Shown here: positions 15,674 to 18,840 of the stretch, in pieces
Position numbering within the stretch: position 1 is the first letter of the stretch
Layout: every line of letters begins with the position of its first letter
Assembly (NCBI RefSeq): GCF_004519315.1
Contig: NZ_SOZE01000013.1
Span: forward strand, 1-64,000
Length of the DNA stretch: 64,000 bases
Source: Mucilaginibacter psychrotolerans
GTDB taxonomy: Bacteria > Bacteroidota > Bacteroidia > Sphingobacteriales > Sphingobacteriaceae
Direction: 5' to 3'
The notes under the pieces: model-generated
Told to the model about the DNA's origin: nothing
Seen by the model: the letters and a program-made list of their open reading frames with translations, nothing else
Database searches by the model: none
Program-made: the position numbers and the translations under genes

Positions 15674-16979
15674 ACAGTTGTAGTTGCACCAGCGGCAGCG
15701 ATATATAAAAGGTGGTGCCTTCTTTCTCTACACTGTTGAACCATATGCGGCCACCCTGTAATTCGGTATAATCTTTACAAAGCACCAGGCCCAGGCCGGT
15801 GCCGCCTTCGTTACCCGTGCCATTGGTTGATGAGGTATTAAGCGAGAAGATATCTGCCTGCTTACTGCGCGATATGCCGATGCCGGTATCGCTGATAGAT
15901 ATGATACAGTTGGGGCCGTCTGCAATAGCCTTCATTACAATGCGGCCCCCCGGGCGGGTAAATTTTACGGCGTTGTTGAGCAGGTTGCGGATAACAATCT
16001 GCAACATATCCGGGTCGGCGCGTACGGTAATGCTTGCGTCGGCAATGGTGCTTAGGGTAATTTCTTTTTTTACCGCAATGGTTTTGAATAGCTGTGTGGT
16101 TTCTTCCAGGTAGGGGCTAAGCTTTACCGCCTGTAGGTAAGCGGTTTCGCCGTTCATCTGGTTCTTGGCCCATTTAAGCAAGTTGGTGAGTAGGTCCTGC
16201 GTTTTGCCGATGGTTTCCATCAGATTCTTTTCCATCTCGGCCCGTTCTTCGGCATCTATGCCCACTTCGGCCATTACGGTGAAATATTGTTGTACCGATG
16301 CCAGCGGCGTGCGCAAATCATGCGCGATGATAGAGAACAGCTTCACCTTTTCGGCGTTCAGCAGTTCAAGGGCCAAAGTCTTCTCATCGGCAAGGTTTTT
16401 TTGGCGGATATAGCTTTGGCGGATAGATGCCGTACCTACGTAGAGCAATATCACCGTAACCAGGTACGAGATGATATTGTCTGTAAATTGATCTGCGCGC
16501 GATTGGTAATGCTGCTGTATAATACCGGGGTACAAATACTCTGACCCGATGAGCGATGCCACTACGATAATGTTGATGCCCAGTAAAAACGGCCACAGCT
16601 TTTTGCTGGATACCGACATGAGGATAAACAGCGATGCGGCAAACAACAGCAGGGTAGCACCGGTAATGCCGTCGTTAAAATAATAGCCTACAGCCTTTAG
16701 TCCGTTAACCTCAATGGCCGATAATATAACCGCGAGTTGCAACTTGTTTTTGATGCGCGATAGATAATACAGGCCACCTTGTATCAATATAACGCCAAAA
16801 GCCAGCCCAGCCGAAACGTACAGGTGAAGGTAGAGGTTAAAAAAAGCCTCTATCATCACCACAATAAGTACAAAAAACGAGAAGGTATGAAAAATACGGC
16901 TTTCGAGCGTAAGCTTTTCGGGGCTGCCTATGATTTTATAGGTGTATTTTTGCAGGAAATTTTTGAACGATACGGGCAT
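15663..16979 (-). CDS. Membrane sensor histidine kinase (HisKA-HATPase)
   Basis: 438 residues. Residues about 30-185 contain six hydrophobic helices and no periplasmic sensor domain. A short linker leads to HisKA with phospho-acceptor His220 in IIAHDLRTPL, then an ATPase domain with N-box Asn336 (RNLLNNAVKF), G1 box DTGIGI (364-369) and G2 box GGTGLGL. It is an orphan: no response regulator is adjacent. The membrane-embedded sensor suggests it reads a lipid, redox or membrane signal. The stop codon overlaps the convergent neighbour. Confidence 0.9.
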   Translation of the reverse strand: MPVSFKNFLQKYTYKIIGSPEKLTLESRIFHTFSFFVLIVVMIEAFFNLYLHLYVSAGLAFGVILIQGGLYYLSRIKNKLQLAVILSAIEVNGLKAVGYYFNDGITGATLLLFAASLFILMSVSSKKLWPFLLGINIIVVASLIGSEYLYPGIIQQHYQSRADQFTDNIISYLVTVILLYVGTASIRQSYIRQKNLADEKTLALELLNAEKVKLFSIIAHDLRTPLASVQQYFTVMAEVGIDAEERAEMEKNLMETIGKTQDLLTNLLKWAKNQMNGETAYLQAVKLSPYLEETTQLFKTIAVKKEITLSTIADASITVRADPDMLQIVIRNLLNNAVKFTRPGGRIVMKAIADGPNCIISISDTGIGISRSKQADIFSLNTSSTNGTGNEGGTGLGLVLCKDYTELQGGRIWFNSVEKEGTTFYISLPLVQLQLFTG

Positions 16980-17107
16980 CGGGGCTAATCAATAGAGCCC
17001 AAATTTATAATAACAATCCGAATAAAAACAGGGGTTGTAACGCATAAATAAATATTAAAAGATTGTGTTTCAGATTTTAAATTATTTATCTACCTTTGTC
17101 GTCCCTG

Positions 17108-17117
17108 AAAGGAGGTA
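17108..17117 (+). promoter_or_regulatory. Extended Shine-Dalgarno sequence of rpsU
   Basis: AAAGGAGGTA at 17108-17117, preceded by G, gives a continuous 10-nt match (GAAAGGAGGT) to the 16S 3' end expected in Bacteroidota; 11 nt separate GGAGG from the ATG. Most genes in this window lack any such site. A TACCTTTG element at 17091-17098 fits the Bacteroidota -7 promoter box, placing transcription start very close to the SD. Confidence 0.85.
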
Positions 17118-17126
17118 TTTGGGATT

Positions 17127-17318
17127 ATGATCATTATCAACGTAAAAGACGGCGAATCATTAGATAAAGCATTGAAACGCTTCAAGAAGAAATTTGAGAA
17201 AACAGGTGTATTAAGAGAACTTCGCAGCCGTCAGGCATTCGAGAAGAAATCTATCACCCGCAGGCACGAAATTAAACATGCCATCTACAAGCAGAATATG
17301 AATATAGAAACTGTTTAA
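17127..17318 (+). CDS. rpsU: 30S ribosomal protein bS21
   Basis: 63 residues, typical for bS21: MIIINVKDGESLDKALKRFKKK start, basic and helical throughout, ending KQNMNIETV. It belongs to the small ribosomal subunit near the 3' end of 16S rRNA. Structural work on Flavobacterium johnsoniae shows that bS21, with bS18 and bS6, sequesters the anti-SD in Bacteroidota. The strong SD in front of this gene fits translational autoregulation: only ribosomes lacking bS21 can use it. It heads the rpsU-xer-hpf group. Confidence 0.95.
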   Translation: MIIINVKDGESLDKALKRFKKKFEKTGVLRELRSRQAFEKKSITRRHEIKHAIYKQNMNIETV

Positions 17319-17363
17319 TTTTTTCTACTGAAAGAATTTTAAATATTTTCTTGTCAACATAAA

Positions 17364-17407
17364 AAAACTATTTGTACATTGAAATCCTTCGGTGTATAAA
17401 TAGTTTT
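17364..17407 (+). promoter_or_regulatory. Stem-loop immediately before the recombinase start codon
   Basis: AAAACTATTTGTACA (17364-17378) pairs with TGTATAAATAGTTTT (17393-17407) over 15 bp with one G-U pair and a 14-nt loop. The 3' arm ends one nt before the ATG at 17409, so it covers the ribosome entry region. The run of T in the 3' arm means it could also act as a weak terminator limiting read-through from rpsU. Confidence 0.65.
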
Positions 17408-17408
17408 T

Positions 17409-18317
17409 ATGTTTTTAGGTAAGTTCATACAGTATATACAATACGAAAAACGGTACTCGCCGCATACTGTAGCCGCCTACCGGTCGGATCTGGAGCAGTT
17501 CATGCTTTTCCTGAATCCCGCCGGCCAACCGCCCGCCATAAACCACCCCTCAGAAATCACCCATCACGATATCCGCAGCTGGATGGTGAGCGACGAAACC
17601 CTCGCCCCGCGCAGCCTTAACCGCAAACTGGCCACCCTGCGCAAGTACTTCAAATTTTTATTGCAGGAGGGGGATATCCAAACCAATCCCGCATCGCGCC
17701 TGGGCCCGGCCAAAACGCCAAAGAATTTGCCCACCGTAGTAGAAGGCGCTAAATTGACCGATATGCTGGATGGTAAACTGGATAAACCCGGTGCGCCTAT
17801 TTTTGCCGATGATTTTGAAGGCATCCGCGATAAAACGGTCATCGAGTTGCTGTTTGGTACCGGCATACGCCTGGCCGAATTATTGGGTCTGCAGGATGCA
17901 GATATAAATTTCGATGAAAAAACCATCAAAGTTTTAGGTAAGCGCAACAAACAGAGGATAATACCCCTCAATAACGAGTTGCTGATACTGCTAAAGGCGT
18001 ATATGGAGGCCAAACGAATTGAAAATTTTCATAACAATTCCTTAACTTTTATCGTTACAACTAAAGGAGCAGCAGCATACCCTAAGTTAATTTACCTGAT
18101 AGTGAATAAACACCTTGGCAACATATCAACCCAAACTAAAAAGAGCCCACACGTGCTGCGGCATACCTTTGCAACAACTTTACTAAACAATGGCGCCGAC
18201 CTTAACGCCATTAAAGAACTTTTGGGGCACGCCAGCCTGAGCGCGACCCAAATTTATACGCACAATTCAGTCGAACGTTTAAAGTCTATTTACAAACAAG
18301 CCCATCCAAAGGGTTAA
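17409..18317 (+). CDS. XerC/XerD-type tyrosine recombinase
   Basis: 302 residues. The N-terminal SAM-like core-binding domain (about 1-90) is followed by a complete catalytic domain: Arg154 (GTGIRLAEL), a Lys in the beta-hairpin near 178-181, His248 and Arg251 (HVLRHTF), His274 (LLGHASL) and nucleophile Tyr283 (TQIYTH). Length and arrangement match chromosomal XerC/D rather than integrases. This recombinase is typically found between rpsU and hpf in Bacteroidota, so it is probably a housekeeping dimer-resolution enzyme. Whether it is the XerC or XerD partner cannot be decided here. Confidence 0.9.
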   Translation: MFLGKFIQYIQYEKRYSPHTVAAYRSDLEQFMLFLNPAGQPPAINHPSEITHHDIRSWMVSDETLAPRSLNRKLATLRKYFKFLLQEGDIQTNPASRLGPAKTPKNLPTVVEGAKLTDMLDGKLDKPGAPIFADDFEGIRDKTVIELLFGTGIRLAELLGLQDADINFDEKTIKVLGKRNKQRIIPLNNELLILLKAYMEAKRIENFHNNSLTFIVTTKGAAAYPKLIYLIVNKHLGNISTQTKKSPHVLRHTFATTLLNNGADLNAIKELLGHASLSATQIYTHNSVERLKSIYKQAHPKG

Positions 18318-18325
18318 AAAGGAGG
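18317..18325 (+). promoter_or_regulatory. Shine-Dalgarno sequence of hpf
   Basis: AAAAGGAGG at 18317-18325 lies 4 nt before the ATG at 18330. It is a strong SD in a window where SD sites are rare, and overlaps the recombinase stop codon. Confidence 0.75.
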
Positions 18326-18329
18326 AAAA

Positions 18330-18677
18330 ATGAAAATTACAGTGCAATCTATTCACTTTACAGCAGACCAGAAACTGCTGAGTTTTATCCAAAAAAAGGT
18401 TGACAAGCTGGAAACATTTTATGACCACATTATTAGTGGCGAGGTTTACTTAAAACTGGAGAACGTAAAAGACGAAGCAAACAAGGTAACGGAGATAAAA
18501 CTGCTGCTCCCGGGCAACCAGATCTTTGCTAAAGAACAGTGTAAAACTTTTGAAGAAGCAACGGATGCAGTAGTTGAAAGCCTGCGCCTGCAAATAGAGA
18601 AACATAAAACCAAAAAATCTATAGCTGCCGAAGCTGCCAAAAAAGCAGTGCTGCTGCCGAGCGAAGACGATTTTTAG
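18330..18677 (+). CDS. hpf: Ribosome hibernation promoting factor, short form
   Basis: 115 residues, the short HPF/YfiA fold: MKITVQSIHFTADQKLLSFI, then KLETFYDHIISGEVYLKLEN and a basic helix (FEEATDAVVESLRLQIEKHK). HPF binds the small subunit decoding centre in stationary phase and helps form or protect inactive ribosomes. The C-terminal dimerisation domain of long HPF is absent. It starts 12 nt after the recombinase stop and ends at a terminator. The strong SD suggests that its translation depends on anti-SD accessibility, as proposed for rpsU. Confidence 0.92.
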   Translation: MKITVQSIHFTADQKLLSFIQKKVDKLETFYDHIISGEVYLKLENVKDEANKVTEIKLLLPGNQIFAKEQCKTFEEATDAVVESLRLQIEKHKTKKSIAAEAAKKAVLLPSEDDF

Positions 18678-18710
18678 ACCATCATAAAACAAGGGTTTTA
18701 ATCCCCCGGG

Positions 18711-18744
18711 AACCGGCAGGCTGTGAAGTTTGCCGGTTTTTTTG
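18711..18744 (+). terminator. Intrinsic terminator after hpf
   Basis: AACCGGCA (18711-18718) and TGCCGGTT (18731-18738) form an 8-bp stem with a 12-nt loop, followed by six T residues. It closes the rpsU-xer-hpf group. Confidence 0.8.
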
Positions 18745-18840
18745 TGTCCGTATTTCACGAAATTTCACCGCATCGTTGTTGCGAGCCATAGCGTGGCAAT
18801 CATCGGCAGGCAAGGCCCGACGTTACGTTATGGCCATAAA

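What the first reader, a model, noticed from the sequence alone, without database searches (positions are those of the whole stretch)
17091..17129. Perfect Shine-Dalgarno before rpsU, fitting bS21 feedback control
Most start regions in the window carry no SD, yet rpsU has a 10-nt match to the expected 16S 3' end. Work on Flavobacterium johnsoniae shows that bS21 helps hide the anti-SD. An SD that only bS21-deficient ribosomes can use would make bS21 synthesis self-correcting. The sequence shows the SD; the feedback is inferred from that related system.
Basis: partly seen in the sequence, partly recalled or inferred. Interest (0 to 1): 0.72.

Follow-up and report, generated by a model that had tools for sequence, protein, structure and literature searches.

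The report
Ribosomal protein S21 gene's feedback signal
A bacterium whose genes mostly lack the classic ribosome-docking signal carries an exceptionally long one on the gene for ribosomal protein S21, a feedback switch already demonstrated in a relative, and a nearby ribosome-hibernation gene keeps a shorter conserved signal whose role is untested.

Summary
Confirmed, and stronger than claimed. The genome's own 16S tail reads AATACCTCCTTTCT, so the rpsU Shine-Dalgarno (SD), GAAAGGAGGTATT at 17107-17119, is a 13-nt perfect complement (-19.6 kcal/mol). Strong SDs are rare: 2 of 253 sampled genes reach -12 kcal/mol against 0 mock windows; at -6 to -9 they do not exceed mock. The rpsU SD reaches -13 in 80 of 80 named relatives, and bS21 Tyr54 is present in 80 of 80. 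The feedback model is published: shown in Flavobacterium johnsoniae, with nearly all Sphingobacteriales meeting the rpsU criteria (PMC9976891). So this is a new member of a known kind; feedback in this organism is inferred.

Added here: hpf (hibernation factor; order rpsU-xerC-hpf) has AAAGGAGG 4 nt before its ATG, -10 or better in 68 of 71 relatives measured, against 0 of 76 for xerC. Outside the family it occurs in 15 of 52 genomes, only 1 of which also has the rpsU SD. At -12.2 it falls just short of the published -13 criterion, so whether bS21-lacking ribosomes favour hpf is open. A terminator-like hairpin follows rpsU in 79 of 79 relatives.

The parts
17091..17098 (+). Putative -7 promoter box TACCTTTG (Bacteroidota consensus TAnnTTTG, recalled)
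   Evidence: Sequence. TAnnTTTG found within 120 nt upstream of rpsU in 78 of 79 named loci, its end 28-56 nt before the ATG; 28 nt in the window. No start site was mapped.
17107..17119 (+). Extended Shine-Dalgarno of rpsU, GAAAGGAGGTATT, 13 nt complementary to the genome's own 16S tail
   Evidence: -19.6 kcal/mol by RNA.duplexfold.
17127..17318 (+). rpsU, ribosomal protein bS21, 63 aa, Tyr at position 54
   Evidence: matches PDB chain 7jil_z, E 6.9e-17, with the Tyr aligned.
17363..17408 (+). Terminator-like hairpin after rpsU; its 3' arm abuts the xerC start codon
   Evidence: hairpin of -14 kcal/mol or better within 110 nt after the rpsU stop in 79 of 79 named loci, 0 of 79 base-shuffled.
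17409..18317 (+). xerC-type tyrosine recombinase (no SD; -5.7 kcal/mol)
   Evidence: Pfam Phage_integrase, E 2e-36; energy.
18318..18325 (+). Second Shine-Dalgarno, AAAGGAGG, directly after the xerC stop and 4 nt before hpf
   Evidence: -12.2 kcal/mol.
18330..18677 (+). hpf/raiA-type ribosome hibernation factor, 115 aa (S30AE domain)
   Evidence: Pfam Ribosomal_S30AE, E 2e-19.

Best explanation
The rpsU leader is an autoregulatory translation switch. In Bacteroidia the 16S 3' tail lies in a pocket made by bS21, bS18 and bS6, so ordinary genes do not use SDs (published). 30S subunits lacking bS21 have a free tail, pair with the 13-nt rpsU SD and start rpsU quickly; as bS21 fills the subunits the tail is hidden and rpsU initiation falls. 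Shown here: the SD, the matching tail, scarcity of strong SDs in a sample, conservation in relatives, and a terminator-like hairpin that makes rpsU look self-contained. Inferred: that the feedback operates in this organism.
For: 13-nt complementarity to the genome's own tail. Pairing of -14.3 to -20.3 kcal/mol in 80 of 80 named loci against 0 of 79 upstream mock windows at -10. Several lineages replace Watson-Crick pairs by G-U or one mismatch (GAGAGG, GGGGG, GGTGG) and still keep -14 or better, while the tail is the same in 30 of 30 genomes where it was found: the long helix as a whole seems to be what is kept. Tyr54, whose mutation releases the control in F. johnsoniae, in 80 of 80. Terminator-like hairpin after rpsU in 79 of 79, in line with rpsU being transcribed on its own in F. 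johnsoniae. Experimental mechanism: PMC9976891.
Against: No expression data for this genome or its close relatives were seen. rpsU is not the only strong SD: in a crude list, starts at L152 and L185 reach -15.1, L221 -13.5, L008 and L177 -13.0, though none comes near -19.6. The bS18 and bS6 pocket residues were not checked. The SD core lies 11 nt from the ATG, rather far by the ~7-9 nt quoted for other bacteria, unless the TATT pairs too.
Confidence: 0.86

Rival explanations
1. The SD is a constitutive strong start signal that simply gives a high rate of bS21 synthesis, without feedback in this lineage.
For: A long SD could raise initiation by itself; purified wild-type F. johnsoniae ribosomes also form very stable complexes on rpsU mRNA (passage of section 30).
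Against: In F. johnsoniae, wild-type cells gave less from a reporter with an introduced strong SD than bS21 mutants did, and bS21 loss raised rpsU'-gfp 3 to 4-fold. Introducing a strong SD lowered tuf'-gfp somewhat in wild-type cells.
Confidence: 0.09
2. The SD works as the loop of a small leader hairpin (UCCC...GGGA in the window) that a protein or temperature controls.
For: The window leader can form a weak fold of -3.9 kcal/mol.
Against: Across 79 loci the longest stem between the flanks of the SD is no longer than after shuffling the flanks (3.59 against 3.57 pairs; 3.68 against 3.53 in the first 25). No Rfam family reached its gathering score in 16800-18800.
Confidence: 0.02
3. The hpf SD only serves re-initiation by ribosomes that have just finished xerC, and has no link with bS21.
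For: In the window it directly follows the xerC stop codon. Outside the family it does not go with the rpsU SD: 1 of 7 genomes with the rpsU SD and 14 of 45 without it have the hpf SD (Fisher p 0.66).
Against: In 4 named loci (L049, L053, L059, L067) xerC lies 89-122 nt away and AAAGGAGG is kept at -12.2. Strong SDs are not a general rule for close gene pairs in the sample: 2 of 85 at -12.
Confidence: 0.4

Closest known systems
bS21 autoregulation by bS21-lacking ribosomes in Flavobacterium johnsoniae (PMC9976891; abstract, sections 4, 25, 32, part 1 of 34 and passages seen)
   Same: Extended rpsU SD matching the whole 16S tail, scarcity of SDs elsewhere, Tyr54 in bS21, rpsU followed by a terminator-like hairpin. 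The paper reports that nearly all Sphingobacteriales meet its rpsU criteria.
   Different: F. johnsoniae has rpsU as its only obvious SD gene; here hpf, rpsG (-12.0) and rpsR (-9.3) also carry SDs, as the paper says for rpsR and rpsG in certain Bacteroidia. Feedback not measured here.
SD sequences on rpsR and other ribosomal protein genes in Bacteroidia (Jha et al. 2021, not held; cited in PMC9976891 section 32)
   Same: Medium-strength SDs on translation-related genes in a clade that otherwise avoids them.
   Different: Passages read concern ribosomal protein genes outside Flavobacteriales; hpf is not a ribosomal protein gene, and the search listing counts 'hpf' 0 times in that paper's main text. 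Supplements were not seen.

Membership tests
bS21 autoregulation (Bacteroidia) | rpsU SD pairing with the 16S tail stronger than -13 kcal/mol | tested here: met
   -19.6 by RNA.duplexfold; the paper used another program (free_scan), so values are not strictly comparable.
bS21 autoregulation (Bacteroidia) | rpsU has the strongest SD among the ribosomal protein genes | tested here: inconclusive
   Only rpsU (-19.6), rpsG (-12.0) and rpsR (-9.3) were measured. Of the 96 AAGGAGG places none but rpsU and L031 extend to AAGGAGGTATT; L031 opens only an 18-codon frame.
bS21 autoregulation (Bacteroidia) | Intact anti-SD in 16S rRNA | tested here: met
   AATACCTCCTTTCT in the genome's one 16S match.
bS21 autoregulation (Bacteroidia) | Most genes lack an SD | tested here: met
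   253 sampled genes against mock windows.
bS21 autoregulation (Bacteroidia) | bS21 Tyr54 | tested here: met
   Window protein and 80 of 80 named loci.
bS21 autoregulation (Bacteroidia) | bS18 and bS6 pocket residues | not tested
   The residues are in a paper that is not held.
bS21 autoregulation (Bacteroidia) | Translation of rpsU rises when bS21 is lost | not testable with these tools
   Needs strains and reporters.
Extended-SD class, applied to hpf | Pairing stronger than -13 kcal/mol | tested here: not met
   hpf is -12.2 in the window and in many relatives.

The most novel reading that the evidence does not exclude
In Sphingobacteriaceae the free-tail state of the ribosome is read by two genes of one conserved cluster: strongly by rpsU (13 nt) and more weakly by hpf (8 nt). 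Loss of bS21 would then raise both the missing protein and the factor that parks ribosomes, linking ribosome repair to hibernation.
Probability: 0.25. Interest if true: 0.68.

Novelty: new member of a known kind. Interest (0 to 1): 0.4.

Why it matters
The rpsU site extends a demonstrated case of specialised ribosomes to one more genome and shows that the matching stretch is the full 13 nt. The hpf SD gives a concrete, cheap test of whether ribosomes with a free anti-SD have more than one target: a hibernation gene that keeps an SD for no obvious reason in a clade that avoids SDs.

Tried and rejected
Leader hairpin around the rpsU SD: no more stem than shuffled flanks. Anti-SD/SD covariation inside Sphingobacteriaceae: rpsU variants GGGGG and GGTGG suggested altered 16S tails, but all 30 tails found (of 48 genomes searched, 18 without a match) were the same. 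Link between rpsU SD and hpf SD outside the family: none (1 of 7 against 14 of 45, p 0.66). Rfam: only two sub-threshold chance-like matches. My first two scripts on the class-wide hpf loci read some loci on the wrong strand or used too narrow a motif; replace them.

Rows dropped. Named loci: 80; hpf found in 73, start codon located in 71 (not L055, L066); misses at -10 are L056, L070, L090. L092 left out of the hairpin and promoter-box counts (79 loci). Class sample: 158 genomes searched, 154 with hpf; I picked 60, about one per family, plus 4 named ones for the S21 search; 57 of the 60 were tabled (5 own family, 52 others); dropped were G053 (hpf stretch not fetched), G075 (no S21 match), G102 (stretches not fetched). 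Eight families are missing from the table. In those 52 the canonical 16S tail was assumed, not checked, so rpsU SDs fitted to other tails would be missed. Mock windows upstream of hpf reached -10 in 2 of 57. The list of 14 plausible AAGGAGG gene starts among 96 places rests on open-frame length and reading by eye.

Full report
What is there. The window belongs to a genome whose nearest named relatives by bS21 are Mucilaginibacter (63 of 63 residues identical at L032); the genome itself is unnamed. The gene at 17127-17318 is rpsU, the only S21 match in the genome. Its SD was described as a 10-nt match to an expected 16S end. The genome's own 16S (contig C78) ends ...AATACCTCCTTTCT, so the match is GAAAGGAGGTATT, 13 nt, at 17107-17119, 7 nt before the ATG; pairing is -19.6 kcal/mol (RNA.duplexfold). 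In the window no other site has fewer than 3 mismatches to it.

Is it unusual in this genome? In 324 kb (the window plus 13 stretches of 20 kb) I called 253 genes crudely. At -6 to -9 kcal/mol, SD zones are no richer than mock zones (16 against 23 at -6, 8 against 8 at -9); at -10, 4 against 3; at -12, 2 against 0; the two are a glycosyltransferase-like gene in L221 (-13.5) and hpf (-12.2). Genome-wide, AAGGAGG 3-14 nt before an ATG occurs 96 times, against 91 for the pattern read backwards; by open-frame inspection about 14 loci among them look like gene starts, among them rpsU, hpf, rpsG and several that reach -13 to -15 kcal/mol (L008, L152, L177, L185). So rpsU is the strongest measured but not the only strong SD. 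Published figures for two relatives are 1 and 2 percent SD genes (Pedobacter cryoconitis, Sphingobacterium mizutaii; PMC10783764, passages).

Relatives. Of 80 named loci, 80 have an rpsU SD of -13 or better (-14.3 to -20.3); 0 of 79 mock windows reach -10; Tyr54 is present in 80. Some lineages use G-U pairs or a mismatch in the SD, though the 16S tail was the same in 30 of 30 genomes in which it was found, 18 of 48 giving no match. A TAnnTTTG promoter-like box lies 28-56 nt upstream of the ATG in 78 of 79, and a hairpin of -14 or better follows the rpsU stop in 79 of 79, against 0 of 79 base-shuffled controls. rpsU therefore looks like a short transcript of its own.

How it most likely works. 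F. johnsoniae work (PMC9976891; abstract, sections 4, 25, 32, part 1 of the discussion, and passages) shows that the 16S tail sits in a pocket of bS21, bS18 and bS6; that depletion or mutation of bS21 raises rpsU'-gfp about 3 to 4-fold with little change in SD-less reporters; and that ribosomes with truncated or missing bS21 initiate faster on rpsU. The paper states that nearly all Sphingobacteriales have rpsU as the winner with pairing below -13. The present locus meets each sequence criterion I could test. The feedback in this organism is inferred. Replete ribosomes still translate rpsU at a reduced rate, so 'only bS21-deficient ribosomes can use it' overstates the model.

xerC (17409-18317) and hpf (18330-18677, S30AE domain) follow. 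hpf has AAAGGAGG directly after the xerC stop and 4 nt before its ATG, -12.2 kcal/mol. Of the named loci, hpf was found in 73 of 80, its start in 71, and 68 reach -10; xerC between the two reaches -10 in 0 of 76. In four loci (L049, L053, L059, L067) hpf lies 89-122 nt from xerC and still has AAAGGAGG. In four genomes where rpsU has moved away (Olivibacter and Sphingobacterium loci), hpf keeps it, 4 of 4 (L254-L257). In a sample of the class, 5 of 5 genomes of the own family have both SDs; of 52 others, 14 have only the hpf SD, 6 only the rpsU SD, 1 both, 31 neither; xerC reaches -10 in 0 of 42, and mock windows before hpf in 2 of 57. hpf against xerC outside the family: p 1e-4; rpsU against hpf: p 0.66. 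So the hpf SD is selected for, but independently of the rpsU SD.

What that may mean. If free-tail ribosomes favour strong SDs in general, hpf would be a second, weaker target. For: a tuf reporter given AGGAGGU rose more than 2-fold in the C-terminal deletion strain and 70 percent in Y54A. Against: the authors hold an extended SD to be necessary, with -13 as criterion, and their bS21-deficient ribosomes were less active in vitro on all other mRNAs tested; hpf at -12.2 falls short; and the two SDs do not go together across the class. Re-initiation after xerC remains a serious rival. I saw no paper on an hpf SD in this phylum in four searches (listings only), which does not cover subscription papers or supplements.

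Verdict. Observation confirmed and sharpened; interpretation supported by published work; new member of a known kind. The open part is the hpf SD.

Noticed in passing
17363-17408: The hairpin between rpsU and xerC has an A/T-rich stem whose 5' arm (AACTATTTGTA) is kept letter for letter in 40 of 79 named loci, where the other loci I printed mostly carry G+C-rich terminator-like hairpins; the 3' arm varies mainly through G-U pairs and abuts the xerC ATG. The 16-nt arm sequence occurs once exactly in the genome. It could be more than a terminator, for instance a control of xerC.
   Followed up: partly
L174 and L112 (own genome): rpsG (uS7) has AAAGGAGG (-12.0) and rpsR (bS18) a GGAGG (-9.3) before the start; the rpsG name is from reading its sequence.
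   Followed up: partly
L258 (Pedobacter schmidteae MAG): The S30AE match has several stop codons inside, so hpf looks broken or badly assembled there.
   Followed up: no
L185, L200 (own genome): Small genes with strong SDs of -15.1 and -11.7 that look like mobile-element genes by eye; imported genes may explain part of the remaining SDs.
   Followed up: no
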